The position numbers were made by a program, and so were the translations under genes. Under the pieces are notes generated by a model. It was not told where the DNA came from. It saw only the letters and a program-made list of their open reading frames with translations, and did no database searches. A DNA stretch of 64,000 nt, from the NCBI RefSeq assembly GCF_900168015.1, contig NZ_FUYR01000002.1:1-64000 (forward strand), written 5' to 3'. Positions 22,971 to 59,332 of this stretch are shown here, in pieces; the first letter of the stretch is position 1; every line of letters begins with the position of its first letter. The DNA comes from Daejeonella lutea. Its GTDB lineage: Bacteria > Bacteroidota > Bacteroidia > Sphingobacteriales > Sphingobacteriaceae.

Positions 22971-23699
22971 ATGACTTTCGAGGAATTCCTAAATAAGAAG
23001 AAAATAGACCTGGCGCAATTCAAAACTGCCGAGCCGGGTTTGTATTTGGAATTTCAAAGCCATTATAGTCAGATGGGAGCGAAAAGCTTCGACCATAGTA
23101 AAAAATTCCTTTTCAATAAGTTGAGAAGGGCTTACCACCTTAAGGAAGAACCAAAAACAGTTCCTGCAAAAGAAATTATTGAAGTTAATGAGATTGCTTC
23201 GCAGGCAGAGCCGCTATTATCTCCTTCAGTGGAAGCCACCGTTTACACGCCGCGATTCCGAGCCACCGGGACGCCAAAGAAAGAAGATGAGGAAATCAGA
23301 TATCTGAAATCTGAAAGTGGGGACCTAGCCTCTGATAAACCTAAGCCAGCCTATACCCCTAGGTTTAAGGCACAGCCTGCTCAAAGGCCTGAAGCCAGTC
23401 CTGTAGAAAAAACGGAACAAGCTAGCCTGTCAGCTAAGCCTGCATTCAAGCCCCGCTTTAAGCCGGGCATGACCGGAACAACGTCAGCAAATTCCATAGA
23501 AGAGAATGAAGAAGAAATCCCCGCTGATAAGCCCAAACCCGCATACGTTCCACGTTTTAAAGCTTCCGTAACAGCCAATCCCGCTGAAGAAAAGATGGAA
23601 GAAACTCCTGCAGTTAAACCAAAGCCCGGATACGTGCCTCGATTCAAAGCCCCCGCAAAAGCCAACCCGTCTTCGCCTTCCGAAAACTCGGACCTCTGA
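22971..23699 (+). CDS. hypothetical protein with a small N-terminal domain and five PRF[KR] repeats
   Basis: 242 residues, no signal peptide or membrane segment. Residues 1-57 form a compact basic-acidic helical domain (MTFEEFLNKKKIDLAQFK, later FDHSKKFLFNKLRRAYHL). The rest is low-complexity and rich in Pro, Lys and Glu, with five spaced copies of a motif xPRF[KR], at residues 93-97, 129-133, 160-164, 193-197 and 222-226. Three are preceded by KPKPxY. The regular spacing (about 30 residues) suggests repeated binding sites in a disordered tail, perhaps for RNA or a protein partner. Function unknown. Its last two codons and stop lie inside a 7-bp repeat array. Confidence 0.82.
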   Translation: MTFEEFLNKKKIDLAQFKTAEPGLYLEFQSHYSQMGAKSFDHSKKFLFNKLRRAYHLKEEPKTVPAKEIIEVNEIASQAEPLLSPSVEATVYTPRFRATGTPKKEDEEIRYLKSESGDLASDKPKPAYTPRFKAQPAQRPEASPVEKTEQASLSAKPAFKPRFKPGMTGTTSANSIEENEEEIPADKPKPAYVPRFKASVTANPAEEKMEETPAVKPKPGYVPRFKAPAKANPSSPSENSDL

Positions 23700-23732
23700 C
23701 CTCAGACTACTGACCTCCGAATACAGACCCTA
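23691..23732 (+). repeat. 7-bp degenerate tandem array overlapping a stop codon
   Basis: Six consecutive heptamers read GACCTCT, GACCTCA, GACTACT, GACCTCC, GAATACA and GACCCTA. The array starts inside the last sense codons of the PRFK gene and supplies its TGA stop. The next gene, on the opposite strand, ends six bases after the array. Confidence 0.75.
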
Positions 23733-23737
23733 GTCCC

Positions 23738-24511
23738 CTACCTCCTGTGCGAAAACAACCATGGAAGCAATCCCGGATCAGCAAAGGCCGCATCCCAGCT
23801 ATTGTGGCCAGCCTCAGGATATAATGTCAGCTTAACATCTTTTGCTTTTAGCCGCTGAAGTTCTGCAACCACCACTTTAGATTTCTCACTTGGCACCGTA
23901 GTATCTTTTTCCCCGTGAAAGAACCATAAAGGGATCTTTTTATATTTTTTTACATTAGCCACATTATCGCCCCCGCAGATTGCAAAAGCGGCTGCAAAAG
24001 TTTTAGGCTTGCGGCGCAGGATTTCCAGCGTACCCATGCCTCCCATTGATAATCCACCCACGTAGAATTGTTTATTATCCGAATATTTCAGATCCCTAAC
24101 CTCTTCGACCAAATCCATCAACAAACTCATTGCTTTACCTGGCTCTCCGCCTTCCTGAAAACCGAAGCGTTCGCCCGTATTCCTAATTTGAACATTTGCC
24201 CAAAAATCTCTTGGCGGACATTGCGGCACAACCACTATTGCAGGAAATTCCTGACGCATGCGGGCACTTTGAAAAAGGTCGCCTCCATGGAGCAACTGTG
24301 CTTCATTATTATTGCCCCGCTCACCAGCACCGTGCAAAAAGAACAGGACAGGATATTTTTTCGCTGGGTCAAAGTTCTCAGGCATCAGGAGCCTATAAAG
24401 CAGAGTATCAGTCCCTCTGACAAAAACTTCTTTCGTATAGGTACTAGTTTGGGCTATAGAACTTTGCTGAAATACCAAAATGGTAAAGGCCAGGCAGATG
24501 ATTTTTTTCAT
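23738..24511 (-). CDS. secreted alpha/beta-hydrolase (esterase/peptidase-like)
   Basis: A 257-residue exported hydrolase. The signal peptide is about residues 1-20 (ending SSIAQ). FFLHGAGERGNN near 57 is the oxyanion-hole region, VGGLSMGGMGT near 152 holds the nucleophile serine (GLSMGG), WFFHGEKDTTVP near 200 holds the acid, and EAGHNSWDAAF near 235 holds the histidine. The layout matches the dienelactone hydrolase/phospholipase-carboxylesterase group often annotated as prolyl oligopeptidase family in Bacteroidota. The substrate is unknown; related secreted proteins act on esters of plant polysaccharides. It converges on the PRFK gene over a heptamer array. Confidence 0.85.
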   Translation of the reverse strand: MKKIICLAFTILVFQQSSIAQTSTYTKEVFVRGTDTLLYRLLMPENFDPAKKYPVLFFLHGAGERGNNNEAQLLHGGDLFQSARMRQEFPAIVVVPQCPPRDFWANVQIRNTGERFGFQEGGEPGKAMSLLMDLVEEVRDLKYSDNKQFYVGGLSMGGMGTLEILRRKPKTFAAAFAICGGDNVANVKKYKKIPLWFFHGEKDTTVPSEKSKVVVAELQRLKAKDVKLTLYPEAGHNSWDAAFADPGLLPWLFSHRR

Positions 24512-24685
24512 AAGGTCAAATTAGCAAAAAAATCTATTTATCCAGCCTCGCCTTACCAGTCTGAGAGTTGAAGATCAAAATCAGAAAGGGAAGCAGACCC
24601 TCTCACATAATAAATTGTTATTCGGACATTTGAGGGGACCTAGGTTTACCGGATAAGAATTAAAACCAACCGTTCAAGTGCCTTA

Positions 24686-25057
24686 TTACTTCTTCAAGAA
24701 AACGAAGTATACCGCCAAGATCAGAAACCCAAATCCGACAAGGTGGTTCCAGGCAATCTTTTCGGTACGAAAAAACAAGAGCGAGAAAATTAGGAAAATA
24801 CCAATTGATAATGCTTCCTGCATCATTTTAAGCTCAAGCAGACTAAACGGCCCGCCGTTTCCCTTAAAACCATATTTATTAGCCGGTACCTGGAAAATGT
24901 ATTCAAACAAAGCAATACCCCAGCTGATTGCGATAATTGCGATCAGTCCCAGTCCTTTGCTCCATTCCATTTCTCTAAACTTCAAATGCCCGTACCAGGC
25001 AAGGGTCATGAAAATGTTGGAAATACAAAGCAGCCCAACCGTTGCTAAAGCTTTCAT
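24686..25057 (-). CDS. DMT-family small membrane protein (DUF486)
   Basis: 123 residues with four predicted membrane helices: about 5-23, 35-55, 72-95 and 100-121. The segments NIFMTLAWYGHLKF, SWGIALFEYIFQVPAN and FSLLELKMMQEALS are typical of the DUF486 branch of the drug/metabolite transporter superfamily. No transported substrate is known. Its start codon overlaps the end of trhO (four-base overlap), so the two form one transcript on this strand. Confidence 0.87.
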   Translation of the reverse strand: MKALATVGLLCISNIFMTLAWYGHLKFREMEWSKGLGLIAIIAISWGIALFEYIFQVPANKYGFKGNGGPFSLLELKMMQEALSIGIFLIFSLLFFRTEKIAWNHLVGFGFLILAVYFVFLKK

Positions 25058-26013
25058 TGACTTACCTGGCTAATGATTTGCTTTTTGATATTGACAGGCT
25101 GCGGCACTTTGACGTAATATCCGGTACCGTCATACTCACGCTTTCGTGGGTGGGCCTGACATACGGTTGAACAGGCGCCTTCAAGTTTTTCCCCGCAATC
25201 ATCACATTGGGTAAAGTGCTCATTACATTCAGGATTGGCACAATTAATCATTTTGGTAGTATGACTATCGCAATTTCGGCAGGTGGAAATTACAACCGGA
25301 TTTACTGTGTTCACGTCAACTGCAACCCTATTATCGAAGACGTAACACTTTCCTTCGAAATCCTTACCACCTGCTTCCTTGCCATATTTTATTATCCCGC
25401 CATGCAACTGGTATACATTTTCAAATCCTTCGTGTAAAAGCAGCGCGGATGCTTTTTCGCATTTAATGCCCCCAGTGCAATAAGTAATAATTTTCTTGTC
25501 TTTGTATTGAGCCAATTCGTTGATCTTAGCCGGAAAATCGCGGAAGTTCTCGATATCCAGGGTTACTGCATTTTTAAACCTGCCGATCGAATGCTCATAG
25601 TCTGAACGCACGTCAAGAATAACCACATCGTCATTATCCTTCATGTTGATAAACTCATCTGCTTCGAGATGGATGCCTGTCTTTTTCTCCGGGTTTATAA
25701 TATTTGGATCCCGCAAACCAGAATGTACTATCTCGGACTTATACCGGCAATGCATCTTAATAAAAGATGGCTCGGGTACTTCATCGATCTTAAAGTCGAT
25801 CTTTGCAAAACGAGGATCAGCATGAAGCGTATCCATATATATTTTACAGGATTCTTCAGTACCTGAAACCGTACCGTTCAGACCTTCATCGGCCACGATT
25901 ATGCGGCCAACCAGATTAAGGGACTTACAAAATATAAGATGTTCTGACGCGAATTGTTCAGCATTCTCTATTGCGTTATAGCAATAGTATAGGAGTGTGT
26001 TATACTTAATCAT
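25054..26013 (-). CDS. trhO: tRNA uridine(34) 5-hydroxylation protein TrhO (rhodanese family)
   Basis: An oxygen-dependent hydroxylase of U34 in certain tRNAs, first step towards (methoxycarbonyl)methoxyuridine modification; formerly YceA. At 319 residues it has the expected N-terminal acylphosphatase-like part (IVADEGLNGTVSGT near 37). A rhodanese domain follows (about 120-220) with the active cysteine in ITYCTGGIKCEKA near 177. A cysteine-rich tail has C-x2-C pairs (about 245-290) that may bind zinc. The rhodanese domain of TrhO does not act as a plain sulphurtransferase in characterised members. It is followed by the overlapping DUF486 gene. Confidence 0.92.
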   Translation of the reverse strand: MIKYNTLLYYCYNAIENAEQFASEHLIFCKSLNLVGRIIVADEGLNGTVSGTEESCKIYMDTLHADPRFAKIDFKIDEVPEPSFIKMHCRYKSEIVHSGLRDPNIINPEKKTGIHLEADEFINMKDNDDVVILDVRSDYEHSIGRFKNAVTLDIENFRDFPAKINELAQYKDKKIITYCTGGIKCEKASALLLHEGFENVYQLHGGIIKYGKEAGGKDFEGKCYVFDNRVAVDVNTVNPVVISTCRNCDSHTTKMINCANPECNEHFTQCDDCGEKLEGACSTVCQAHPRKREYDGTGYYVKVPQPVNIKKQIISQVSQ

Positions 26014-26269
26014 AAATCATTGATACTGCTGCAAACAGCGTTTAATGCGGTGGCAAAGATACGACGGAGTGCTTGATTTATCAAGACATGGGGGCTTCGA
26101 ATGCGAAAGTGCCGTAAATTTAGGTCCAACTTTTTGGGTGGAAACCTATCTACAGGTTATTATCAAAAGTTAAGTTGAGTATTTAATTTAATACCTTAAC
26201 TATGTTAGGGAGTTAAATTATGACAAAACACGGCATCAATCATCTGAACTACAACTGTCATACAATCAA

Positions 26270-27070
26270 ATGGCTGTAGATCACGAAAAACTCATGACGG
26301 GCAAATCGTCCGACGGGCTTCAGGCTTACCTGGATAATTATAAGAAGTACACAACCGAAGCAGTTGAGGCTGCAGTCGCAGAAATGCAAAAACGTGGTAG
26401 AGTATTTACTGAAGAAGAGTTGATGAAACTGCGAACTAATCTTAAATCCCAGGAGGTAGTGCGTGAAGAACAAGATATAGCGCTCTCCGGCACCAAATTG
26501 GATGAAAACATTGTCGACGATCAAAATGCCCCCGAATACTATTCTGAAAGGGCGATCTATATATTTTCTGCTCTTTTCAGTGTTCTCTTCGGAGCCGCTT
26601 TGTTAGCTATAAATCTACGAAATACACGACAAGAAAAAGGGATATGGGAAGTTGCGGCATTTGGTATTTTATATACTTCCGTGCATAAAATGGTCTTTAC
26701 CACGATGGATGATACTGCTGAGTTCACTGCAAATGCTGCACTTGATCCGTCTACCCCTCGCTTTTTAAGAATTGCTGGCGACCAGGTAAGTCCTAAGGAG
26801 ATCAGGGAAATAATGAGAGATATATCGGGTAAGAGATATCGCATGCTGAAAACAGGAGGTCCTGGATTGTTGAGTCTGGTAATCAGAATCACTAAAACGA
26901 TTGCTCCTGGAAAGACTGAACTTTACCCTGCCTGGCAGGGAATGCAGTATATGCGAAATATGATAGACAAACGGGCAGATCTGAGCAGCACCGACAATAG
27001 CCGTTATCAGGGGGTAAAGTGGACTACCGTGAAAGATCTGATATCTAAACTTCCGGCAGAAGAAATATGA
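26270..27070 (+). CDS. hypothetical membrane protein
   Basis: 266 residues. Residues 1-65 form a charged helical region (YLDNYKKYTTEAVEAAVAEMQKRGR), a motif I have seen at the N-terminus of other Bacteroidota hypothetical proteins. Two hydrophobic segments follow (about 97-116 and 123-142). The remaining soluble half (about 150-266) is cytosolic or periplasmic and resembles no family I recognise. It stands alone between divergent trhO and the co-directional arr gene, with an 84-base gap to the latter. Function unknown. Confidence 0.72.
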   Translation: MAVDHEKLMTGKSSDGLQAYLDNYKKYTTEAVEAAVAEMQKRGRVFTEEELMKLRTNLKSQEVVREEQDIALSGTKLDENIVDDQNAPEYYSERAIYIFSALFSVLFGAALLAINLRNTRQEKGIWEVAAFGILYTSVHKMVFTTMDDTAEFTANAALDPSTPRFLRIAGDQVSPKEIREIMRDISGKRYRMLKTGGPGLLSLVIRITKTIAPGKTELYPAWQGMQYMRNMIDKRADLSSTDNSRYQGVKWTTVKDLISKLPAEEI

Positions 27071-27154
27071 CCATTAGTATTGGTTAGTAAACTGCAAATT
27101 TTGAGTAATCGCCCCCACTTTCTATCTTTATCTTACTCATCCTAAAAGAAAAAC

Positions 27155-27901
27155 ATGGAATTCAATCCATCGAACCCAATTGTCAAGCTGTGTCTCCAGG
27201 GAATGGCTTTGGAAGACCAGGGCAAACCCGAAGAAGCGGCCAAATTTTTTATCCAGGCATGGACAGAATCGACAAACAACTTTGAAAAGTTTCTTGCTGC
27301 TCATTATGTGTCTCGTCATCAGATGAATGTCCAAGACAGGTTACTCTGGCTTAAAACAAGCCTTGACCTTTCGAAAAAAATAGACAGCCAGCTTGTTCAC
27401 AGTGCCCTCCCTGCTTTATACATCAGCATTGCCCAATGCTATGAGGAATTAAAAGACGCTGCAGCCATTAAACATATCCATGAGGAATTAGCAAAGGAAT
27501 TAACTAAAAACCCCTTTGATAAAGGCCCCTTTTATCATGGAACGAGGGCAGCACTTAATGTTGGTGATCTGTTAATTGCAGGTAGCAATTCAAATTATAA
27601 AACAGACCTCAAGATGAACCACGTCTATTTTACGGCCATAAGTAATGGAGCAGGATTAGCCGCGGCATTGGCTAAAGGTGATGGACCGGAACGAGTTTAC
27701 ATCGTAGAACCCACTTCGGGCTTTGAGAATGATCCGAATGTAACCAATAAAAAATTTCCAGGGAACCCCACCCGGTCGTACCGTTCAACAGCCCCTTTAA
27801 AAATCATTGGAGAGTTAAAAGAGTGGGACAGGATATCTCCAGAAGACCTTCAGCAATGGCGCGATAAGCTGGCCAAAAATCAAGGCGAGATTATTAATTA
27901 G
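27155..27901 (+). CDS. arr: NAD(+)-rifampin ADP-ribosyltransferase (Arr) with an N-terminal helical domain
   Basis: Arr enzymes transfer ADP-ribose from NAD+ to the 23-hydroxyl of rifamycins, inactivating them. The C-terminal half (about 121-248) is a full Arr domain: FYHGTRAALNVGDLL with His128, the SNYKTD segment, VYIVEPTSGFENDPN near 188 (conserved Asp) and KKFPGNPTRSYRS. Typical Arr proteins are about 140 residues. Here 115 residues precede the domain; they look like TPR-type helical pairs (GMALEDQGKPEEAAKFFIQAW, SIAQCYEELKD). The extension could regulate or localise the enzyme. Whether it confers resistance is not shown. No mobile element is adjacent, so it seems intrinsic. Confidence 0.88.
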   Translation: MEFNPSNPIVKLCLQGMALEDQGKPEEAAKFFIQAWTESTNNFEKFLAAHYVSRHQMNVQDRLLWLKTSLDLSKKIDSQLVHSALPALYISIAQCYEELKDAAAIKHIHEELAKELTKNPFDKGPFYHGTRAALNVGDLLIAGSNSNYKTDLKMNHVYFTAISNGAGLAAALAKGDGPERVYIVEPTSGFENDPNVTNKKFPGNPTRSYRSTAPLKIIGELKEWDRISPEDLQQWRDKLAKNQGEIIN

Positions 27902-27946
27902 GCAGCCGATCTTGCCCAGTCGTCGGGCTCTCCTTATATTTATTCC

Positions 27947-28480
27947 ATGGAGAATATAACCGAATCCCTGTTTGCCGAAAATACGCTTGATGAGTTCGGT
28001 TTCATACGCTACATCTACCATACCCATAAACCGAGAGCCTTATTTCTTATCGACTATGAGCCAGATCCTGAGACGCTTGTTTTAGTTGATGAGATTGACA
28101 GTTTTAAAGATTATAGTGACACCGAGATAGATGGAATGATGATCCGGCTCCGGGGGTTATGGCGACAATATAAAACTGAGATTCTGGAAGAACCTGAATT
28201 GTGTTTGGATCCATCCGAAATGAAGCACCCCGATCTTGATGACGTAGTAACCATCTCAATTATAAACGGAACGGAAAAACCTGATCCTGCGGAATTTGAA
28301 ATGCTGGATAAGAGTTGTCTCCTAAAAATGTCAATTAACAATCAAGGATTCTGGGCGAGCATCCTGGAGTTTGATCTCGAAACCGAGTCTATTATTGGCG
28401 TGGTGCAAAGCTACCTAGATGAAGAAGATCTAAAAACAAAAGATCATTTCATGGCCTTCAAAACCCGTATGCTATCCTAA
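27947..28480 (+). CDS. hypothetical acidic protein
   Basis: 177 residues, strongly acidic (pI clearly low by eye), no signal peptide or membrane helix. I recognise no family. Tryptophan and acidic clusters such as DEIDSFKDYSDTEIDGMM and YLDEEDLKTKDHF suggest a soluble cytosolic protein. It follows arr by 45 bases on the same strand and may share its transcript. Its last 23 bases overlap the 3' end of the convergent DUF5686 gene. The reading frame is well formed and has an ATG start. Confidence 0.68.
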   Translation: MENITESLFAENTLDEFGFIRYIYHTHKPRALFLIDYEPDPETLVLVDEIDSFKDYSDTEIDGMMIRLRGLWRQYKTEILEEPELCLDPSEMKHPDLDDVVTISIINGTEKPDPAEFEMLDKSCLLKMSINNQGFWASILEFDLETESIIGVVQSYLDEEDLKTKDHFMAFKTRMLS

Positions 28481-31012: not shown

Positions 31013-31033
31013 CAGACTCAAAAGCAACCTTCT

Positions 31034-33728: not shown

Positions 33729-34304
33729 ATGGAAGTCGATAAAATAAAGGAAAGTATAAAGAAAGCGGCGCAGGACCTGTTCAGAAAATACGGTTACCAT
33801 AAAACCAGTGTGAACGAAATTGCCAAACGGGCAAAGATCGCCAAAGCAACAATTTACAAATACTTTGAGAGCAAAGAATTGTTATTGCAGGCAATTTTGA
33901 TGGAATATATACAGCATAGCGTTCATGAAATCATCCATAATCCATCGGAAGACCTGGACGAAGAAGCCTATTTGAGCAGTATTATTCTCAAAACAAGCCG
34001 CCTTTCTTACACTGTTTGTAATGAATTTATTGGCTGGGAATTCATTCGTGAATCCGCAAACTCCCAGGAGTTTTTGAAATCTCTTTCAGATGATCTGGAA
34101 GATCTTCTAATCCGATCATTCAACGAGACACAGCTTTTTAAAGCTGATGACTATATAGCAAGGCTTCGGTTTCTTATCAAGGCCAGCAAAAGTATTGTTT
34201 TCTCATTCGCATTTACTTCGGTAAGCGATTCAGACGTACGCAAAAATTTCATATCTTTTCAAAAGGAGATCCTACCCTATTTGGTTAAGGCGGCGGTTAA
34301 ATAG
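33729..34304 (+). CDS. TetR/AcrR family transcriptional regulator
   Basis: 191 residues. The N-terminal helix-turn-helix (about 10-55) has AAQDLFRKYGYHKTSVNEIAKRAKIAKATIYKYF, quoted here as a region; its key residues are the Gly-Tyr turn and the TIYKYF recognition helix end. The C-terminal ligand-binding helices are not recognisable. It is the third gene of the pheS operon (one-base gap). Its target is unknown; no efflux pump or lipid gene lies beside it, so it probably acts elsewhere or on its own operon. Heptamer arrays begin eight bases after its stop. Confidence 0.9.
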   Translation: MEVDKIKESIKKAAQDLFRKYGYHKTSVNEIAKRAKIAKATIYKYFESKELLLQAILMEYIQHSVHEIIHNPSEDLDEEAYLSSIILKTSRLSYTVCNEFIGWEFIRESANSQEFLKSLSDDLEDLLIRSFNETQLFKADDYIARLRFLIKASKSIVFSFAFTSVSDSDVRKNFISFQKEILPYLVKAAVK

Positions 34305-34312
34305 TATACTTT

Positions 34313-34503
34313 GAGAGTTGAGAGTTTACGGTTGACACTGGAACCCTAACCCTATCTAAAAATCCGTAACTTAATACCTCCACTTTTCACCTTCCACCTT
34401 CCACCTTCCACCTTCCACTTTCCACTTTCCACTTTCCACTTTCCACTCTCCACTCTCCACTCTCCACCTTCCACTTTCCACTTTCCACCTTCCACCTTCC
34501 TCA
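34313..34503. repeat. two 7-bp tandem arrays of opposite strand sense
   Basis: Left arm at 34313-34340: units GAGAGTT, GAGAGTT, TACGGTT, GACACTG. Right arm at about 34378-34503: some 17 pyrimidine-rich units such as CTTCCAC, CTTTCCA and CTCTCCA, again with strict 7-base phase. The right arm has the opposite strand bias (its complement is purine-rich). Together they fill most of the gap after the TetR gene. Confidence 0.85.
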
Positions 34504-34670: not shown

Positions 34671-34812
34671 AATTGACAATTGATAACTCTCAATTGACGA
34701 TTGCGAAATTGCTATGCTTATTCCTAACTTAACAAATTACTTCCTACCTACTTCCTACTTCCTACTTCCTACTTCCTACTTCCTACTTCCTACTTCCTAC
34801 ATCCTAACTCAT
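34671..34812. repeat. 7-bp arrays between the orphan ORF and rlmD
   Basis: Left arm 34671-34705: units AATTGAC, AATTGAT, AACTCTC, AATTGAC, GATTGCG. Right arm about 34741-34802: eight copies of ACTTCCT or a close variant. A 142-codon open frame through the right arm would encode YFLLPTS repeats upstream of rlmD; that is an artefact of the 7-base array. Confidence 0.82.
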
Positions 34813-34857
34813 ACCTCATACCCCCTGGCTCAAATAATTTCCCTAATTTTGCCGCTC

Positions 34858-36285
34858 ATGAAAAAAGTGCCGGCAGATAAAAAGTTCTTGCAGAACATCG
34901 AAGTAATAGATATTGCTGAAGAAGGCAAGGGTGTAGGTAAATCGGATGACCTTGTAATATTTATTGACAAAGCAGTTCCGGGTGACCTGGTCGATGTGGA
35001 GCTGGTACGCCGAAAGAAAAAATTCTTTGAAGGCCGGATTCAGAACCTGGTCAGACCATCAGAACATCGCACTGATCCATTTTGTCAGCACTTTGGTGTA
35101 TGCGGCGGGTGTAAATGGCAGACTTTAACTTATGAGTCGCAGCTAAAATTCAAGCAAAAAAGTGTTGGCGATGCACTCCAACGCCTCGCAAAGGTGGATA
35201 TCTCCGGAATGGAAACTATCCTCGGCTCAAAAGCTTCACGATACTATCGTAACAAGCTTGAATATACTTTTTCAGATAAACGCTGGCTTACTGATGGCGA
35301 TATGAGGTCTGAAGAAACCATGGAAATGAATGCCCTCGGTTACCATATTCCCGGCAGGTTCGACAAGATACTGGATATAGAACACTGTCATCTGCAAGCC
35401 GATCCTTCTAATGATATACGCAACCAGGTAAGAGAATATGCCCTTGCAAATGAAATTTCATTTTATAACCTGCGCAACCATGAAGGGGCTCTGAGAAATC
35501 TGATCATCAGGACCTCAAGCATAGGCGAGTTGATGGTTATTGTCGTGTTTGCTTACCCGTCAGATGAGCAGGTGACCGGAATGATGGAATTTCTAAAAAA
35601 CGCTTTTCCAGCTATAACATCGCTGTTATATATAATCAATCAAAAGAAAAACGATACGATTTTTGACCAGGAAATTAATGTTTATAATGGTCGAGATCAC
35701 ATTTTCGAAAATATGGATGGTCTTAAATTTAAAATCGGTCCAAAATCGTTTTACCAAACAAATTCCGAGCAAGCATTTGAATTATATAAAATAACAAAAG
35801 ATTTTGCAGGCTTCAAAGGCGATGAATTAGTGTATGATCTGTACACCGGAGCCGGAACAATTGCAAATTTCGTTGCTTCGGATGTGAGGAAAGTTATCGG
35901 TATCGAATATGTCCCAACGGCCATTGAAGACGCAAAGATCAACTCTGAAATAAATAACATCGGGAACACCAGCTTTTATGCCGGCGACATGAAAGATATT
36001 CTGAATGCCGAATTCATCTCCGAACACGGAAAACCTGACGTGGTAATCACCGATCCTCCCAGGGCAGGAATGCACCAGGATGTGGTAAATCGCCTGCTTG
36101 AAATGGAAGCTGAGAAAATAGTTTACGTAAGCTGCAATGCTGCTACACAAGCCCGAGATATCGCTTTATTGAAAGAAAAATATGAAGTTACAAAGATACG
36201 TCCTGTTGATATGTTCCCTCATACGCAGCACGTAGAAAATGTTGTTTTGCTACAGCTTAGCAAGAACCAACTTTTACAATCATAA
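34858..36285 (+). CDS. rlmD: 23S rRNA (uracil-C5)-methyltransferase, RlmD type
   Basis: SAM-dependent methyltransferase expected to methylate U1939 (or a similar uracil) of 23S rRNA. I start at ATG 34858 (475 residues) because the upstream in-frame extension is repeat-encoded and a TAATTTTG -7 box ends seven bases before this ATG. A TRAM domain (about 8-65) comes first. The [4Fe-4S] cysteines are in FCQHFGVCGGCKWQ near 78-91. The SAM loop VYDLYTGAGTIANFVA is near 326, DPPRAGMHQDV near 400, and the catalytic cysteine in YVSCNAATQ near 424. RlmD, RlmC and TrmA are close relatives; the U1939 assignment is inferred. Confidence 0.9.
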   Translation: MKKVPADKKFLQNIEVIDIAEEGKGVGKSDDLVIFIDKAVPGDLVDVELVRRKKKFFEGRIQNLVRPSEHRTDPFCQHFGVCGGCKWQTLTYESQLKFKQKSVGDALQRLAKVDISGMETILGSKASRYYRNKLEYTFSDKRWLTDGDMRSEETMEMNALGYHIPGRFDKILDIEHCHLQADPSNDIRNQVREYALANEISFYNLRNHEGALRNLIIRTSSIGELMVIVVFAYPSDEQVTGMMEFLKNAFPAITSLLYIINQKKNDTIFDQEINVYNGRDHIFENMDGLKFKIGPKSFYQTNSEQAFELYKITKDFAGFKGDELVYDLYTGAGTIANFVASDVRKVIGIEYVPTAIEDAKINSEINNIGNTSFYAGDMKDILNAEFISEHGKPDVVITDPPRAGMHQDVVNRLLEMEAEKIVYVSCNAATQARDIALLKEKYEVTKIRPVDMFPHTQHVENVVLLQLSKNQLLQS

Positions 36286-37628: not shown

Positions 37629-38138
37629 ATGACTGCAAAGAAATTATTGATACTTGACAAAAAACAAATCCAGCAGAAGATTGAGCGAATGGCTTATGAG
37701 ATTCTCGAAGATAATCTGAACGAGAAGGAGATCATTATGGCTGGAATTGTTGATAAAGGATATACCATTGCAAAACAGATCAAGAAAGCGCTTGAAGCAA
37801 TTTCCGAAATCAAGGTAACTCTGATGAAGATCGAATTGGATAAGAATAGCACCCATCTGCAGGCTGTCACTGATATTGAAGTCGCAAAAGCCTCAAATAA
37901 AGTAGTAATTCTTGTTGATGATGTCCTCAACAGCGGAAGAACACTTGCCTACGGACTTGGTGTATTCCTGGATATCCCGCTTAAAAAGCTTAGAACCCTT
38001 GTTTTGATTGATCGCAGTCACCGCAATTTCCCCGTATCGCCTGACTATACAGGGCTCGAACTGGCTACCATTCTGAAAGAACATGTAGATGTGGTAATGG
38101 GCGTCAAATCCGAAGCAGACGCAGTTTACTTAAGTTGA
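37629..38138 (+). CDS. PyrR-like phosphoribosyltransferase
   Basis: 169 residues. The PRPP-binding motif VVILVDDVLNSGRTL is near residues 95-109 and is diagnostic of type I phosphoribosyltransferases. The layout resembles the PyrR/uracil phosphoribosyltransferase group (KVTLMKIELDKNSTHLQ near 61, then IDRSHRNFPVSPDYTGL near 128-144). PyrR in Gram-positives regulates pyrimidine genes and has weak UPRTase activity; whether this one regulates is unknown, and no pyr gene lies beside it. Its TGA stop overlaps the first unit of a heptamer array. Confidence 0.85.
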   Translation: MTAKKLLILDKKQIQQKIERMAYEILEDNLNEKEIIMAGIVDKGYTIAKQIKKALEAISEIKVTLMKIELDKNSTHLQAVTDIEVAKASNKVVILVDDVLNSGRTLAYGLGVFLDIPLKKLRTLVLIDRSHRNFPVSPDYTGLELATILKEHVDVVMGVKSEADAVYLS

Positions 38139-38300
38139 AAGTGGAGAGTGGAGAATTGAGAGTTGTGAGTTGTGAGTTGTGAGTTGGCACCGTACCTAGT
38201 CAGATATTCTTACCTTGACCAGCCCTTTACCCAATTACCCGATCACCCAATTACCCGATCACCCAATTACCCGATCACTGATTACCTAATTACTTAGTAC
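38137..38300. repeat. 7-bp and 8-bp tandem arrays after a stop codon
   Basis: At 38137-38186 seven heptamers run GAAAGTG, GAGAGTG, GAGAATT, GAGAGTT, then GTGAGTT three times; the first overlaps the upstream TGA stop. At about 38228-38295 the period is 8: CCCAATTA alternating with CCCGATCA three times, then decaying variants. The two arrays are separated by about 40 bases. Confidence 0.85.
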
Positions 38301-38335
38301 TGATCACTGATTACCGGTTAATAATTACAGTCACC

Positions 38336-41669: not shown

Positions 41670-41733
41670 TCCCGCACGTGCGGGACTATGAATCCTTTGC
41701 CGCGCCGCGCACGCATCCGATAGCTATCGGATG
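41670..41733. repeat. two perfect palindromes in the folP-cdaA gap
   Basis: TCCCGCACGTGCGGGA at 41670-41685 (16 bases) and CATCCGATAGCTATCGGATG at 41714-41733 (20 bases) are both perfect palindromes, 28 bases apart. The region is GC-rich compared with neighbouring gaps. The two may be copies of interspersed palindromic repeats or folP/cdaA control sites. Confidence 0.85.
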
Positions 41734-44503: not shown

Positions 44504-44603
44504 ATCTTAATTATTAACGTTTTCTAAACTTTGTACAAAGTTAAGGAATGCTGATGATAGTAGTGGATAAAGAAACGTATTTGACGTTTAGATTACGGAA
44601 GGA

Positions 44604-45044
44604 GTTGACAGTGGACAGTTGACGGTTGACAGTTTTGCATAACTTATAACTAGCAACTACTGTTCTTCAATGATGAGCCCTGTGGATTTGCTTTTACTGT
44701 CATAACCGAAAAGAATCAAGCCAGAGTTTAATAAACCGGATCGCAGCGGCAACTTTTAACCAACGCGCTCTTTATCAATAACATGAATTTCAACGGCCAA
44801 AACTAAAGCGAAGAGCCGGACTACCCTAACCAAAGAACAACAAGCCCGGCTTTTCAACGAATGTTATACAGTCGTTTTAGGCAATAATCTCTCTCAACTT
44901 TACTTTCCCATTTCCACTCGAAATTCTCAGCTCTCCACTCTCAATTTTCCATTATCACCTCTAAACTGTCACCTTTCAACCCTAGCTCATATTCCAGTTA
45001 GATACGTCATTCCATTGTCAACCGTCAACTGTCAACCGTCAACT
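44604..45044. repeat. inverted pair of 7-bp arrays upstream of ahcY
   Basis: Left arm 44604-44632: GTTGACA, GTGGACA, GTTGACG, GTTGACA. Right arm 45017-45044: GTCAACC, GTCAACT, GTCAACC, GTCAACT. Sixteen bases of the left arm (44617-44632) match the reverse complement of 45029-45044 exactly. The 384 bases between contain no convincing gene, only scattered CT-rich, poorly phased repeats near 44880-44990 and an A/G-rich stretch near 44800. Confidence 0.8.
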
Positions 45045-46485: not shown

Positions 46486-46513
46486 GAGGTCTGAAGTCGG
46501 AGGTCTGAAGTCT
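46486..46513 (+). repeat. 7-bp array directly after the ahcY stop
   Basis: Four heptamers GAGGTCT, GAAGTCG, GAGGTCT, GAAGTCT begin at the first base after the TAA. They lie in the ahcY 3' untranslated region, just before its terminator. Confidence 0.8.
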
Positions 46514-46537
46514 GATCTTACCGGCGACTAAATATTA

Positions 46538-46569
46538 AACCCTTTCGATTTTTCGGAAGGGTTTTTTTG
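46538..46569 (+). terminator. rho-independent terminator of ahcY
   Basis: Stem AACCCTTTCG with CGGAAGGGTT (one G-U pair) around a TTTT-type loop, followed by a run of T. It ends the ahcY transcript 53 bases after the stop, past the heptamer array. Confidence 0.88.
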
Positions 46570-53486: not shown

Positions 53487-53697
53487 TCATTATTACCCGT
53501 AATATCCTGGTGACAGAAAACACTTGTCTGAATATCTATGAAATTTTCGGATATATTTATACAATATGTTTGCACTAAATTTAATTACACTTTTAAAAAT
53601 CCTCATGATTTGCTCGAAACCATAGCGGTATGATGATCAGATCATGACAACCCTGCATACCGCGGGCAGGTTCATAACCATCAAAAAACTCAAACAA

Positions 53698-54285
53698 ATG
53701 AAAATGAAGAAAATCTTTTTAACTCTCAGCATTCTAACAGGGATGGCAGTTTTTATGTCATTCGATAAACCGGTAAAGGATACGATCTATACTGTAGATA
53801 CGGAACGCTCTACAATTGACTGGACTGCAAAGAAGGTTGGCGGCGGACATACCGGAACAATCAAAATCACCTCTGGAAATCTAGTACACAATGGGAAATC
53901 TTTAACAAAAGGCACTTTCCTGATTAACATGGCGAGCATTACCTCTGACAATGCACGTGTTACCACCCACTTGAAATCAGACGATTTTTTTGCAGCTGAA
54001 AAAAATCCAAATTCGAAATTTGAAATTACTAAAGTTACCCCTGCCGGCACTGACCGCGTAAATATTGCGGGAAATCTTACTATAAAAGGCATAACTCAGC
54101 CAATCTCTTTTCCGGCGACCGTTAAAACACAGAAAGGTATAATTGTCGCTGTGGCAAACGGAATCCGTGTAGATCGTACTAAATATGATATCAAGTTCCG
54201 TTCAAAAACGTTCTTCCTTGATATCGGCGACCGTGCTGTTGATGATGAATTTGAATTGAATATTAATTTGGTAGCCAAAAAATAG
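53698..54285 (+). CDS. exported YceI-family lipocalin-like protein
   Basis: 195 residues from ATG 53698; an upstream in-frame ATG at 53644 would add 18 non-signal-like residues, so the later start is preferred. The signal peptide is about residues 3-22. The YceI domain (about 30-195) shows DTERSTIDWTAKKVGGGHTGTIK near 34, FLINMASITSDNARVTTHLKSDDFF near 78 and ITQPISFPATV near 133. Family members bind isoprenoid-like ligands in a lipocalin barrel, and some are induced by stress. It is monocistronic. A 7-bp inverted repeat array begins at its stop. Confidence 0.9.
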   Translation: MKMKKIFLTLSILTGMAVFMSFDKPVKDTIYTVDTERSTIDWTAKKVGGGHTGTIKITSGNLVHNGKSLTKGTFLINMASITSDNARVTTHLKSDDFFAAEKNPNSKFEITKVTPAGTDRVNIAGNLTIKGITQPISFPATVKTQKGIIVAVANGIRVDRTKYDIKFRSKTFFLDIGDRAVDDEFELNINLVAKK

Positions 54286-54355
54286 AACCAAGAGCCAGGA
54301 ACCAAGAATCAAGACTGTTCATGTGTCTTGATTCTTGGCTCTTGATTCTTGATTC
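54285..54355. repeat. 7-bp inverted array forming a 14-bp perfect hairpin between convergent genes
   Basis: Left arm 54285-54315: GAACCAA, GAGCCAG, GAACCAA, GAATCAA, GAC, starting on the last base of the yceI TAG. Right arm 54325-54354: GT then CTTGATT, CTTGGCT, CTTGATT, CTTGATT. The central part, CCAAGAATCAAGAC with its exact reverse complement (54302-54338), is a 14-base stem with a nine-base loop. The convergent MBL gene ends six bases further on. Confidence 0.88.
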
Positions 54356-54360
54356 AAAAA

Positions 54361-55125: not shown

Positions 55126-55181
55126 TGTCTTTGTTTATTATGAGGTTAAATTCTATTTTTACGGCTTAATAGGGCAAAGAT

Positions 55182-56891
55182 ATGCAAAAAAGGTGGGTGG
55201 AACAGGAGGTCAAAAACCCTGCGCAAATAGAGGAGCTGCAACAATTACTTAATGTAGATCCTGTTTTGGCGAGCCTGCTCGTTGGAAGGGGGATTGACAC
55301 CTTCGAAAAAGCCCGGCATTTTTTCCGCCCTGACCTTTCAGACCTTCATGATCCATTTTTGATGAAAGATATGGATCTGGCGATTGTGCGCATCGAACAG
55401 GCATTAAGTTCCGGTGAAAAGATCCTTGTCTACGGCGATTACGATGTGGACGGCACAACTTCGGTTGCCCTGGTCTATAGCTTTTTTAAGAAATATCATT
55501 CCCAGATCGATTTCTATATTCCAGACCGGTATAAAGAAGGCTATGGAATATCCTCACAGGGCATAAATTTTGCTGCAGAAAATGGATTTTCGCTCGTGAT
55601 TGCATTGGACTGCGGCATAAAGTCCATTGATAAGATCGATTACGCAAATGGAAAAAAGGTAGATTTTATTATATGTGATCACCATCTTCCTGGAGAAGAA
55701 CTTCCAGATGCAATTGCGGTTCTAGATCCGAAGCGGATTGATTGCCTTTATCCCTACAAAGAATTATCAGGCTGCGGCATTGGATTTAAGCTTGTTCAGG
55801 CATATTGTCAAAAAAACAATATCGCATTCAGCGACATCTCTTGTTATCTCGATCTGGTGGCTGTCAGTATTGCGTCGGATATTGTACCAATTACTGGAGA
55901 AAATCGGGTCCTGGCCTGGTATGGCCTGCAACGGATAAATACTGAACCGTGCAAAGGTATAACTGCGCTTATGAATTTATCCGGCAGGAAAGACAATCTG
56001 ACAATTACCGATGTCGTCTTTACAATCGGACCTCGTATCAATGCGGCAGGAAGAATCGATGATGCAAAACATGCTGTAAATCTGCTGATCGCTGAAACAG
56101 ATGCCATCGCATTTGAAAAAGGTGAGGTTATTAACATAAAAAATACTGAACGGAGGGAGCACGATAGCAATATTACCGAACAGGCATTAGCATTTATTGA
56201 TGCTGACCCGGAATTAATTTCCCGAAAAACCACTGTCGTATACAATGAGCAGTGGCATAAAGGTGTCATCGGAATTGTTGCATCCAGGCTGACTGAGAAA
56301 TACTATCGTCCTACCATTGTTATGACTCATTCCAACGGTTACGCTGCAGGCTCAGCCAGGTCGGTACTCGGCTTTGACCTGTATGAAGCTTTGCTGGAAT
56401 GCAGCGATTTGCTTGAGCAATTTGGGGGACATAAATATGCTGCCGGCCTCACCATGAAAACAGAAAACATTCCGGCATTTCAGGCAAAATTTGAAGAAGT
56501 TGTAGGTCGTACGATACCACCGGAATTGTTAATTCAGACGATAACGATTGATGCCGAAATGGAACTTCACAAAATAGATCCTAAGTTCTATCGAATTTTG
56601 AAGCAATTCGAACCCTTCGGTCCTCAAAATATGGCGCCTGTATTTATGAGCAGAAATGTCTATACTTACGGTTCCGCTTCAACTGTTGGGGGGAAGCATT
56701 TAAAAATGAGCGTGCGTCAAAACAACAATACAATTTATAACTGCATAGGATTCGGACTGGCCGATTATCTTCCTCAAGTCAACAATGGTATGCCATTTGA
56801 TATTTGCTACACCATTGAGGAAAATAAATGGATGGATAGAACATCGTTACAATTGAATATCAAAGGAATTCGCACATCGCAACCAGCTTAG
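55182..56891 (+). CDS. recJ: single-stranded-DNA-specific exonuclease RecJ
   Basis: 5'-3' single-strand exonuclease used in recombinational and mismatch repair. 569 residues. DHH motifs: VYGDYDVDGTTSVALVYSFF near 83-102 (motif I), ALDCGIKS near 143 and ICDHHLPGEELPDA near 162-175 (DHH), LDLVAVSIASDIVPITGENR near 227-246. The DHHA1 domain begins with WHKGVIGIVASRLTEKY near 352 and holds GGHKYAAGLT near 423. The gene is followed after 12 bases by lptB, a pairing that suggests one operon although the products act in different processes. Confidence 0.96.
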   Translation: MQKRWVEQEVKNPAQIEELQQLLNVDPVLASLLVGRGIDTFEKARHFFRPDLSDLHDPFLMKDMDLAIVRIEQALSSGEKILVYGDYDVDGTTSVALVYSFFKKYHSQIDFYIPDRYKEGYGISSQGINFAAENGFSLVIALDCGIKSIDKIDYANGKKVDFIICDHHLPGEELPDAIAVLDPKRIDCLYPYKELSGCGIGFKLVQAYCQKNNIAFSDISCYLDLVAVSIASDIVPITGENRVLAWYGLQRINTEPCKGITALMNLSGRKDNLTITDVVFTIGPRINAAGRIDDAKHAVNLLIAETDAIAFEKGEVINIKNTERREHDSNITEQALAFIDADPELISRKTTVVYNEQWHKGVIGIVASRLTEKYYRPTIVMTHSNGYAAGSARSVLGFDLYEALLECSDLLEQFGGHKYAAGLTMKTENIPAFQAKFEEVVGRTIPPELLIQTITIDAEMELHKIDPKFYRILKQFEPFGPQNMAPVFMSRNVYTYGSASTVGGKHLKMSVRQNNNTIYNCIGFGLADYLPQVNNGMPFDICYTIEENKWMDRTSLQLNIKGIRTSQPA

Positions 56892-56903
56892 ACGACGAAA
56901 AAA

Positions 56904-57638
56904 ATGATCCTAAGAGCTGAGAATCTCGTAAAAAAATACAAACAACGCACCGTAGTCAACGATGTTTCGTTTCACGTTTCGCAAGGTGAAATCGTCGGTT
57001 TGCTGGGCCCGAACGGTGCTGGTAAAACCACCTCATTCTATATGATCGTAGGTCTGATCAGACCAAATGAGGGAAACGTTTTCCTGGATGACGCAAACAT
57101 CACAGAAGATGCTATGTATCGAAGGGCACAGAAAGGTATCGGCTACCTTGCCCAGGAAGCTTCCGTTTTTAGAAAACTAACTGTTGAGGATAATATAAAA
57201 GCCGTTCTTGAAATGGGCAGGCTTAGCAAAGAAGAGCAACGTGAAAAACTCGAGCAGCTGATCGATGAGTTTAGTCTTCATAAGGTTCGTAAAAATCGCG
57301 GCGACCTGCTTTCGGGAGGAGAACGCAGAAGGACTGAGATAGCCCGCGCACTAGCTGCCGACCCTAATTTCATACTCCTCGATGAGCCCTTTGCTGGTGT
57401 CGATCCGATAGCGGTAGAAGAAATTCAAAGCATCGTGGCCAAACTTAAGCTGAGAAATATAGGGATCTTGATAACCGACCACAATGTGCAGGAAACGCTG
57501 TCGATAACCGACAGGGCTTATCTGCTGGCCGAAGGGAAAATAATGCTTACAGGAACACCTGTGGAAATCGCAAACAATGAAATGGCCAAAAAATTCTACC
57601 TTGGCCAGAATTTCGAGTTACGTAAAAAGAAACTCTAA
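56904..57638 (+). CDS. lptB: LPS export ABC transporter ATP-binding protein
   Basis: ATPase of the LptB2FG complex that pulls lipopolysaccharide from the inner membrane to the Lpt bridge. 244 residues. Walker A is [13 protein letters not shown] near 36-48, the Q-loop region [12 protein letters not shown] near 83-94, the ABC signature [15 protein letters not shown] near 135-149, Walker [14 protein letters not shown] near 156-168, and the switch histidine in [10 protein letters not shown] near 192. These match LptB over generic ABC ATPases. lptF/G and lptA/C are not in this window. The GH3 gene follows by 23 bases. Confidence 0.95.
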
Positions 57639-57661
57639 ACCGGGTATAGTCCTATCTCTCT

Positions 57662-59170
57662 ATGACAATAGTAAATTCCATTTTTACCTGGATAATGAAA
57701 AAGCGGATGCATCAGATCGAGCTTTTCATTAAATATCCATATGATGTCCAGGATGAATGGTTCCAAAATCTAATATCATCTGCTCAGCATACTGAATGGG
57801 GAAAGACCCATGGATATTCCACCATATACACTCAGGATCAATTTAAAGAGCGGGTACCTATTCAAAATTATGATACTCTCAAGCCATATATTGAACGGAT
57901 GCTTGCCGGCGAGCAAAATGTCCTTTGGCCATCAGAAATAAAGTGGTTTGCAAAATCCTCAGGCACAACCAACGATCGCAGTAAATTCATTCCGGTAAGT
58001 GAAGAATCCCTTGAAGAGTGTCACTTCAAAGGCGGTAAGGATTTGCTCAGCATGTACTGTGACAATCGACCGGACACCAAAATATTTACGGGAAAATGCC
58101 TTGTGCTCGGTGGTAGTCATCAGATAAATCAGCTGAATTCGGATTCATGCTATGGAGACCTTTCCGCTGTGTTAATAAAGAACCTTCCTTTCTGGGCAGA
58201 GTTTTATCGTACACCGGACATGTCGATCGCACTGATGGATGACTTTGAAGCTAAAGTTGAGAAAATGGCTCAGGCAACAATCGGCGTCAATGTCACAAAC
58301 ATATCAGGTGTTCCCACCTGGAATATAGTGCTTGCAAAACGCGTCCTCGAAATAACGGGTAAAGATAATTTGCTTGAAGTATGGCCCAATCTGGAATTTT
58401 ACTTCCACGGCGCTGTAAATTTCAAACCCTACAGAGAGCAATTTAAAAAGCTCATTCCTTCGGATAATATGTATTATATGGAAACATATAATGCGTCCGA
58501 GGGGTTTTTTGGTATTCAGGATCAGCCCAATTCGGAAGAAATGCTGCTGATGCTTGATTACGGCATTTATTATGAGTTTCTTCCTATGGAAGACATTCAT
58601 GCAGAGAATCCTAAAACCCTCGGCCTGGATGAGGTGCAGCTGAATAAGAATTATGCTCTGATCATCTCTACCAATGCCGGCTTGTGGCGATACATGATCG
58701 GAGATACAATTAAATTCACCTCCCTTTCTCCGCATCGCATTCAAATTACCGGGCGGACAAAACATTTTATTAATGCATTTGGAGAAGAATTAATCATAGA
58801 TAATGCGGAGAAAGGTCTTTCTAAAGCTTGCAGCGAGACAAACGCCGTTATCCGCGACTACACAGCCTGCCCCATTTACTTTAAAGGAAATGAAGCCGGA
58901 GGTCATGAGTGGATCATTGAGTTTGAACAAAAGCCGAATGATATCGAACGATTTACTGATGTCCTCGACGAGACTCTGAGAAGTATTAATTCAGATTACG
59001 ATGCCAAACGATTCAAGGATATGGCACTCCGCAGACCAAGGATCCATGTTGCTGAAGATGGCGTTTTCTATCACTGGATGAAAAACCGGGGTAAGCTGGG
59101 CGGCCAACATAAAGTGCCGCGGCTGGCTAATGACAGGACGTATGTGGATGAAATCTTGAAAATGCTTTAG
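57662..59170 (+). CDS. GH3-family acyl-acid amido synthetase-like protein
   Basis: 502 residues of the GH3 (auxin-responsive promoter) family, ANL-type adenylating enzymes. The plant enzymes conjugate carboxylic acids to amino acids after adenylation. The ATP site is seen in WFAKSSGTTNDRSKFIPVS near 99-117; YYMETYNASEGFFGIQDQ near 270-287 and LWRYMIGDTIKF near 342 are further adenylation-fold motifs, and KFINAFGEELIIDNAEKGL-like KHFINAFGEELIID near 363 follows. In bacteria the substrates are unknown. It follows lptB by 23 bases, so a role with a lipid or LPS acyl group is conceivable but unproven. Confidence 0.87.
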   Translation: MTIVNSIFTWIMKKRMHQIELFIKYPYDVQDEWFQNLISSAQHTEWGKTHGYSTIYTQDQFKERVPIQNYDTLKPYIERMLAGEQNVLWPSEIKWFAKSSGTTNDRSKFIPVSEESLEECHFKGGKDLLSMYCDNRPDTKIFTGKCLVLGGSHQINQLNSDSCYGDLSAVLIKNLPFWAEFYRTPDMSIALMDDFEAKVEKMAQATIGVNVTNISGVPTWNIVLAKRVLEITGKDNLLEVWPNLEFYFHGAVNFKPYREQFKKLIPSDNMYYMETYNASEGFFGIQDQPNSEEMLLMLDYGIYYEFLPMEDIHAENPKTLGLDEVQLNKNYALIISTNAGLWRYMIGDTIKFTSLSPHRIQITGRTKHFINAFGEELIIDNAEKGLSKACSETNAVIRDYTACPIYFKGNEAGGHEWIIEFEQKPNDIERFTDVLDETLRSINSDYDAKRFKDMALRRPRIHVAEDGVFYHWMKNRGKLGGQHKVPRLANDRTYVDEILKML

Positions 59171-59175
59171 GAAGA

Positions 59176-59332
59176 AGTATCAAGAGCCAAGTATCAAGTA
59201 TCAAGAGTTGGGGCAGGTAATTTTTATAAGCAAGCCCTACAGTCCAAGTATAACTCCACCAATCGGGAACCGAATATCAATTTAACCAAGAACGTATCTT
59301 GATACCTGCTACTTGATACCTGATACTACCTC
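59176..59332. repeat. inverted pair of 7-bp arrays linking two convergent stop codons
   Basis: Left arm 59176-59210, five bases after the GH3 stop: AGTATCA, AGAGCCA, AGTATCA, AGTATCA, AGAGTTG. Right arm 59298-59332: CTTGATA, CCTGCTA, CTTGATA, CCTGATA, CTACCTC, which contains the TAG stop of the leftward terC gene (59326-59328). In its own reading direction each gene ends in the same TATCAAG-like unit. About 87 unremarkable bases lie between. Confidence 0.88.

What the first reader, a model, noticed from the sequence alone, without database searches (positions are those of the whole stretch)
23691..59332. Locus-specific 7-bp tandem arrays recur across intergenic gaps and often touch stop codons
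At least eight gaps carry arrays with a strict 7-base phase but a different unit each time: GACCTCT (23.7 kb), GAGAGTT and CTTCCAC (34.3-34.5), AATTGAC and ACTTCCT (34.7-34.8), GTGAGTT (38.1), GTTGACA and GTCAACC (44.6-45.0), GAGGTCT (46.5), GAACCAA (54.3) and AGTATCA (59.2). The phase is shared though the sequence is not, which plain homologous repeat spread does not explain. The arrays at 23691, 38137, 54285 and 59298 overlap a stop codon, and 46486 abuts one. No protein or CRISPR structure accounts for them. I know no named element with these properties. They may be 3'-UTR stability or termination elements, products of slippage at gene ends, or a mobile miniature element. This is the strongest candidate for an undescribed system in the window.
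Basis: seen in the sequence. Interest (0 to 1): 0.78.

Follow-up and report, generated by a model that had tools for sequence, protein, structure and literature searches.

The report
Polar heptad-repeat hairpins between bacterial genes
Gaps between genes in this Sphingobacteriaceae genome carry tandem arrays of 7-base units that often face each other as hairpins; at the gaps compared, related species keep an array in the same place but with a different unit, an unusual variant of a known kind of simple repeat.

Summary
In a 464-kb sample of the genome, period 7 gives 81 arrays (71 intergenic); other periods from 5 to 20, except its double 14, give 1-13 (0-4 intergenic). Dinucleotide-shuffled gaps give 0.6 against 68. 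The units share a degenerate grammar, roughly G[T/A]NNNA[A/G/C], and fall into dispersed unit families. The arrays are polar: the G-rich strand reads into the gap from its edge at stop AND start codons (46 of 51 near-edge arrays here, 37 of 37 in congeners), so the rule concerns the gap, not the stop codon. In the array-bearing congeners, four gaps with arrays here have arrays in 24 of 28 orthologous gaps; seven gaps without, mostly shorter, have 0 of 45. Yet the unit differs between species. Best reading: inherited intergenic palindromes with slippage-prone heptad arms whose units turn over in place. Nearest kin are Xanthomonas GGGAATC inverted pairs, other heptamer repeats and the Nostoc tRNA-Leu intron P6b stem. 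Function is unproven; neither Y1 transposase nor reverse transcriptase tracks the arrays.

The parts
23687..23729 (-). CT-type heptad array (GTCAGAG on - strand), weak, overlaps stop of + gene 22971-23699; convergent gap
34311..34326 (+). G-type array TTGAGAG (GTTGAGA), left edge of gap after stop at 34304
34379..34500 (-). CT-type array TCCACTT, 17.4 copies; (TCCACTT)3 gives 14 overlapping matches at 6 places in the genome
34671..34703 (.). weak AATTGAC array (65% matches)
34738..34822 (-). CT-type array CCTACTT (8.6 copies at 34747-34806), right edge of gap upstream of the probable true start at 34858
38132..38186 (+). G-type array GTTGAGA/TTGTGAG overlapping stop of phosphoribosyltransferase gene 37629-38138
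38227..38314 (-). repeats at the other side of the same gap, CT-type by eye: 16-bp ACCCAATTACCCGATC x3.1 (perfect), then degenerate GATTACT heptads
44603..44634 (+). G-type array GTTGACA, left arm of inverted pair in a divergent gap
45017..45043 (-). CT-type array (GTTGACG on - strand), right arm; arm similarity 0.89
46486..46515 (+). G-type array GTCTGAA directly after stop of SAH hydrolase; a separate hairpin + T-run lies at about 46537-46568
54284..54314 (+). G-type array GAACCAA, left arm, overlaps stop of YceI gene 53644-54285
54326..54355 (-). CT-type array (GAATCAA on - strand), right arm; with the left arm forms a -37.1 kcal/mol predicted hairpin filling the 75-bp convergent gap
59175..59205 (+). 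G-type array GTATCAA, left arm after stop of GH3 gene 57662-59170
59298..59327 (-). CT-type array (GTATCAG on - strand), right arm, touching stop of - gene 59326-60372

Best explanation
The arrays are slippage-prone heptad simple-sequence repeats built into intergenic palindromes: a G-rich array (roughly G[T/A]NNNA[A/G/C]) at the left edge of a gap, a spacer, and its C-rich inverse at the right edge, so that either strand reads G-arm, loop, CT-arm. Shown: period, intergenic location, grammar, polarity, matching unit family in the two arms in this genome, and, for four gaps, position shared across congeners with change of the unit. Inferred: units change in place by replication slippage that amplifies variants, plus exchange (ectopic conversion) between arrays dispersed in one genome. 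Inferred, weaker: the hairpin is kept because it acts at gene ends (backstop of transcription or 3'-end protection).
For: Period and chance. Grammar; the own-genome grammar also fits congener arrays, 3.09 against 1.99 +/- 0.20 phase-permuted (51 arrays). Polarity: neighbouring arrays in a gap +/- 20, -/- 3, +/+ 2, -/+ 1; congeners +/- 11, -/- 8, +/+ 2, -/+ 1; near-edge arrays with the G-arm outermost 46 of 51 (own) and 37 of 37 (congeners), at starts 20 of 21. Arms match in unit: 0.724 against permuted 0.521 +/- 0.028, maximum 0.600 (20 pairs). Position: 24 of 28 against 0 of 45 orthologous gaps. Unit similarity: same gap/other genome 0.580 (154 pairs), same genome/other gap 0.552 (22), neither 0.469 (289). 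Unit switch between two species 92.0% identical, read by eye in degenerate repeats below my array threshold: SAH-hydrolase gap of G031 GTCGGAG-like, of G010 GTTGACA/GTTGATA-like. Arrays per kb of gap: convergent 3.86, co-directional 1.80, divergent 0.90. Canonical terminator at convergent gene ends: with array 1/30 own and 1/38 congeners, without 11/60 and 6/28. Paired convergent gaps fold more stably than shuffles (z -3.62, n=6; gaps without arrays -1.31, n=19).
Against: In congeners the arm match is only suggestive: 0.661 against 0.543 +/- 0.060, permuted maximum 0.709 (11 pairs). Unit order is not mirrored between arms (31 pairs: 16 up, 12 down, mean gain 0.45), so neither base-by-base selection on pairing nor recent arm copying is shown. 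The position count is confined to window 40-64 kb: 20 of the 28 come from two convergent gaps, the array-free controls are co-directional or divergent and several are short (23-64 bp), and the 'array-bearing' group was defined by having arrays, not by a tree. The congener terminator counts are mostly the same two convergent gaps in different species and count both ends of a gap. At co-directional ends there is little or no terminator depletion (3/24 and 0/9 against 15/131 and 15/106), and array and terminator coexist after SAH hydrolase. Within-array differences are transition-rich (0.57 own, 0.67 congeners), but so are coding differences (0.56-0.66); array-free gap differences range from 0.35 to 0.62. 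Fold comparison rests on 6 convergent and 6 co-directional paired gaps. No within-species data, no RNA data. Slippage alone does not explain polarity or grammar.
Confidence: 0.55

Rival explanations
1. Small mobile (MITE- or SDR-like) elements whose terminal inverted repeats happen to be heptad arrays insert at gap edges; different subfamilies bring different units.
For: Fixed polarity, matching arms, unit families dispersed over gaps. A 9-mer CTGGGCGGA (56 genome matches against 7 for the reversed pattern) follows an array within 20 nt in 11 of 30 loci read; 10 of these are among the 19 loci called gap and lie 0-5 nt after G-arrays of several different units. A palindrome CCGATAGCTATCGG (11 sites, 0 for the reversed pattern) or a variant lies amid heptads in one congener and is absent in a related one (L161/L162, heptads there by eye; L194/L187). 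Two neighbouring gaps of L095 are strongly alike outside the arrays, and L205 and L234 share their sequence after CTGGGCGGA.
Against: Positions are shared across congeners, 24/28 against 0/45 (with the limits given above). Apart from the L095 pair, array-masked spacers of array-bearing gaps give only short or weak matches. Y1 transposase was not found in the own genome and 6 other genomes of 20, and was found in array-poor ones (G005, G013, G015, G016). RVT_1 was found in 3 of 20 genomes, the own included. Target-site duplications were not examined and other transposase families were not searched.
Confidence: 0.2
2. Transcription terminators or 3'-end stabilisers in their own right, replacing ordinary terminators.
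For: Convergent enrichment; fewer canonical terminators at convergent array-bearing ends, 2/68 against 17/88 with both samples summed; by eye an ordinary hairpin + T-run at the end of the YceI gene in two congeners without arrays there (L153, L155).
Against: Same gap polarity at start-codon edges, 20 of 21; 6 of 61 divergent gaps carry arrays; array and hairpin + T-run coexist after SAH hydrolase. The counts are not independent (two ends per gap, same gaps in different species).
Confidence: 0.25
3. Neutral polymerase slippage alone, with 7 nt set by polymerase geometry (the Mrazek proposal as told in PMC4679880 and PMC4692102).
For: 7-nt phase, array-length differences between close species (by eye), and known over-representation of heptamers in many bacteria (PMC4692102 passages).
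Against: Does not predict polarity, a shared grammar, or inverted pairs of the same unit.
Confidence: 0.15
4. Sense-strand binding sites for an RNA-binding regulator, as proposed for TAACTGA repeats of Beggiatoaceae.
For: 30 arrays lie within 15 nt of the nearest stop with the G-strand sense, against 2 antisense; congeners 28 against 1.
Against: At start-codon edges the sense strand is the C-rich one, and in co-directional gaps 18 of 37 arrays are sense: orientation follows the gap, not transcription. Units differ between genes and species.
Confidence: 0.07

Closest known systems
GGGAATC heptamer repeats of Xanthomonas and GGGGA(T/C)T of Nostoc (PMC4692102; start of abstract, section 10 and passages seen)
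   Same: Period 7, 89-93% intergenic in Xanthomonas, 70-75 convergent inverted pairs, closer to the 5' neighbouring ORF (average 28 nt) than to the downstream one (160 nt), mostly between the same genes but with length and sequence variation in related species, degenerate unit (GGGANTN).
   Different: One G4-forming unit type is studied there; here many unit families under a looser grammar, mostly without GGG, and the unit itself differs at one gap between species.
P6b stem-loop of the Nostoc tRNA-Leu intron, Class I TDNGATT / Class II NNTGAGT (PMC4476775; abstract and passages seen)
   Same: Hairpin stem built on 7-nt repeat motifs; unit class replaced repeatedly at one fixed place; gain or loss of 7-nt repeats.
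   Different: A single locus inside a group I intron; here many intergenic gaps.
TAACTGA direct repeats of Beggiatoaceae, Cyanobacteria and some Bacteroidetes (PMC4679880; abstract, introduction and sections 11, 12, 24 read)
   Same: Intergenic 7-mers; other heptamer direct repeats noted in gaps of Gramella forsetii, A. sublithincola and Elizabethkingia anophelis; indels mostly in 7-nt steps between two close Cyanothece strains.
   Different: One unit, mostly just upstream of start codons in BOGUAY; no inverted-pair polarity described in the sections read.
Cyanobacterial STRR repeats with embedded small dispersed repeats (SDR); Elhai et al. 2008, recalled, not read
   Same: Small repeats embedded in heptamer arrays (recalled).
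   Different: Different phylum and sequences; two Nostocaceae plasmid stretches of 50 kb held only 2 and 4 period-7 arrays, so no direct comparison was obtained.

Membership tests
Heptanucleotide long simple-sequence repeats (LSSR) | tandem 7-nt units beyond chance, mainly non-coding | tested here: met
Heptanucleotide long simple-sequence repeats (LSSR) | copy-number change by multiples of 7 between close relatives | tested here: inconclusive
   searches show array-length differences by eye; indel lengths were not tabulated
Xanthomonas/Nostoc G-quadruplex heptamers | GGG tract in each unit | tested here: not met
   unit lists: nearly all consensus units lack GGG (exception GGGTTAG)
Xanthomonas/Nostoc G-quadruplex heptamers | convergent inverted pairs in one gap | tested here: met
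TAACTGA repeats | unit TAACTGA, just upstream of starts | tested here: not met
   consensus units and positions
REP/BIME moved by RAYT (Y1 transposase) | Y1 transposase in genomes that carry the element | tested here: not met
   no match in the own genome; matches in 13 of 20 genomes, array-poor ones among them
MITE | conserved internal sequence between copies | tested here: inconclusive
   one strong pair of neighbouring gaps, otherwise short or weak matches between array-bearing gaps; a short junction motif, and one shared core (L205, L234)
MITE | target-site duplication and empty sites | not tested
   no strain-level genomes held; not examined in congeners
Intrinsic terminator | GC stem followed by T-run | tested here: not met
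   at own array-bearing gene ends 1/30 convergent and 3/24 co-directional score as canonical terminators
CRISPR | repeats of 23-50 nt with unique spacers | tested here: not met
   contiguous 7-nt units
Known structured RNA (Rfam) | match above gathering score over the arrays | tested here: not met
   a tRNA and a DUF805 RNA in the window, neither at an array

The most novel reading that the evidence does not exclude
Heptad palindromes with the G-rich arm outermost are a general architecture in several phyla (Bacteroidota here; inverted heptad pairs in Xanthomonas and a heptad-built stem in Nostoc are in print), maintained by an unidentified trans-acting machinery with a 7-nt step that fixes grammar and polarity, tolerates any unit that obeys the grammar, and converts both arms of a palindrome to one unit.
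Probability: 0.15. Interest if true: 0.8.

Novelty: new variant of a known kind. Interest (0 to 1): 0.55.

Why it matters
Why heptamers are favoured among bacterial simple repeats is an open question in the papers seen. Here one genus offers many arrays, some at shared positions with different units, with a fixed polarity and a shared grammar, so that slippage, conversion and selection on hairpins can be separated by strain sequencing and simple deletions. It also warns that a conserved gap structure can hide behind sequence that does not align.

Tried and rejected
Rejected: stop codon as the seed of the array (column match at the three stop positions 0.29, 0.32 and 0.36; positions upstream range from 0.14 to 0.44; 58 arrays). 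Rejected: arrays as serial stop codons in three frames (G-strand units hold a stop triplet in 57% of own arrays, permuted 59 +/- 5%; congeners 31%, permuted 41 +/- 5%; C-strand units hold more than permuted, unexplained). Rejected: transcription-sense orientation as the rule. Not found: mirrored unit order between arms. Rejected: RVT_1 or Y1_Tnp as the genus-wide driver. Inconclusive: transition excess as a sign of wobble pairing; Nostocaceae plasmids as a comparison. Outside the genus, the 80 named Bacteroidota loci show weaker polarity under the grammar learned here (stop 22:5, start 8:7, 13 far). One search used a motif pattern one letter too long for CCGCCCAG; one search rescanned with CTGGGCGGA and variants. 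One search crashed and was redone.

Limits: genes were called by a simple longest-ORF rule, so gap edges at starts are approximate, and in G002 none of the 6 arrays of its stretch was counted as intergenic. The array threshold (score 9) misses short or decayed arrays. Of the 10 arrays inside ORFs, nine were left out and one (34738) was kept, giving 72. Searches used 70 own arrays, without that one. Thirty-three arrays farther than 40 nt from a gene edge (19 own, 14 congener) were left out of the polarity count. The CTGGGCGGA motif was first noticed in the sample, one of the 30 loci read (L234) overlaps that sample, and 26 of the 56 genome matches were not read. The GH3, YceI and SAH-hydrolase gaps were chosen because they bear arrays here; one search gives the controls. 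In some searches two YceI loci (L150, L157) were read from the opposite gene of the gap. No species tree was built.
Full report
Setting. The window is G000:C8:1-64000 of a 4.03-Mb genome in 10 contigs. The best named relatives of one window protein are a Pedobacter MAG and a Daejeonella MAG at 84% identity, so it is a Sphingobacteriaceae bacterium, probably Daejeonella or a near relative (inference). Nineteen congeners (G001-G018, G031) were searched over.

Observation. In the window 15 segments score at period 7 against 0-2 at periods 5, 6, 8-13 and 15; period 14, the harmonic, gives 12. In 464 kb of the own genome there are 81 arrays, 71 intergenic, against 1-13 (0-4 intergenic) at other periods from 5 to 20 except 14. 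Shuffled gaps give 0.60 (maximum 2 in 20 rounds) against 68 observed.

Units. An EM over 72 arrays with free rotation and strand found a shared grammar: G at 0.90, then mostly T or A, three loose positions, then mostly A, then A/G/C; mean 3.82 bits against 2.88 +/- 0.08 with phases permuted. Congener arrays fit the same matrix, 3.09 against 1.99 +/- 0.20 (51 arrays). Units form families: 57% of 70 own arrays have the same consensus in another gap, null 16%.

Architecture. Within a gap the order is G-array then CT-array in 20 of 26 neighbouring pairs here, with 1 in the reverse order, and in 11 of 22 against 1 in congeners. In the own genome the two arms use the same unit family more than permuted arms do; in congeners this is only suggestive. 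The order of variants is not mirrored. The polarity belongs to the gap: near-edge arrays have the G-arm outermost in 34 of 38 at stops and 12 of 13 at starts here, and in 29 of 29 and 8 of 8 in congeners. The 75-bp gap after 54285 is one predicted hairpin of -37.1 kcal/mol.

Evolution. Four gaps of the window's last 24 kb bear arrays here and have orthologues in array-bearing congeners: 24 of 28 of these have arrays (1/3, 4/5, 11/11, 8/9). Seven array-free gaps with orthologues give 0 of 45. The controls are co-directional or divergent gaps of 23-218 bp, and the group of congeners was defined by bearing arrays, so this is strong but not matched evidence. The unit differs: at the YceI gap GAACCAA here, GAACAAA in G003, GACAACA types in G017, G009 and G002; at the SAH-hydrolase gap GTCTGAA here, GTTGTCA in four congeners and GTTGCCA in one. 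Unit similarity is raised both by sharing a gap (0.580) and by sharing a genome (0.552) over neither (0.469) (pairs not independent). Six congeners (G005, G006, G013-G016) have 0 or 1 array in the stretches read. Close species differ in array length and composition with alignable flanks.

Extra parts. CTGGGCGGA follows G-arrays of several different units by 0-5 nt in 10 of 19 gap loci (30 loci read). It also exceeds the reversed pattern in array-poor congeners such as G013 and G016, so part of its excess is unrelated to arrays. A palindrome, CCGATAGCTATCGG, has 11 sites here, none for the reversed pattern, and it or a variant lies amid heptads in some congeners only. This recalls the small repeats embedded in cyanobacterial heptamers (recalled, not read).

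Mechanism. I favour inherited palindromes with slippage-prone arms, units replaced by amplification of variants and by exchange among dispersed arrays. What keeps them is open. A role at gene ends is suggested by the density order convergent > co-directional > divergent and by fewer canonical terminators at convergent array-bearing ends, and weakened by start-edge arrays and by coexistence with a hairpin + T-run after SAH hydrolase. Neither Y1 transposase nor reverse transcriptase is shared by the array-bearing genomes.

Comparison with print. Nine searches of the library led to heptamer papers on Beggiatoaceae, Xanthomonas/Nostoc and the Nostoc tRNA-Leu intron. No listing described grammar-bound heptad palindromes with differing units in Sphingobacteriaceae; subscription papers, among them Mrazek 2007 and Elhai 2008, were not read. 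Period 7, inverted pairs and unit replacement are thus each known; their combination under one grammar and gap-edge polarity is what I did not find.

Noticed in passing
window 38227-38278: Perfect 16-bp tandem repeat ACCCAATTACCCGATC (3.1 copies), also read as 8-mers, next to heptads: a rare change of period.
   Followed up: no
G000:C8:228608-228810 (L218-L220): Tandem units of 97 bp made of ATAGGAT-like words with CTGGGCGGA in each; similar words occur before other CTGGGCGGA sites (L207, L209).
   Followed up: partly
own genome, 11 sites incl. window 41717-41730: Palindrome CCGATAGCTATCGG dispersed, none for the reversed control; it or a variant lies amid heptads in congeners (L161, L194).
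   Followed up: partly
L117 and L151 (G001): REP-like palindrome GGACAGGTCGCGACCTGTCC in gaps where congeners carry heptad arrays.
   Followed up: no
L170 and L178, downstream of SAH hydrolase: Higher-order repeats: a heptad block plus TGGCTAACGACA-like sequence, about 50 nt per unit, repeated.
   Followed up: no
C-strand units: C-strand heptads hold a stop triplet more often than permuted units (53% against 32 +/- 5% own; 35% against 23 +/- 5% congeners).
   Followed up: no
window 62310-62374 (-): DUF805 RNA (RF03081), 63.2 bits, near the 5' end of the - ORF at 61869-62369.
   Followed up: no
window 34714-36285: Mechanical ORF start is probably wrong: the two closest homologues begin at residue 43-44 and an array lies in the supposed N-terminus.
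   Followed up: partly
window 14482-21144: ORF of 2220 aa, not examined.
   Followed up: no
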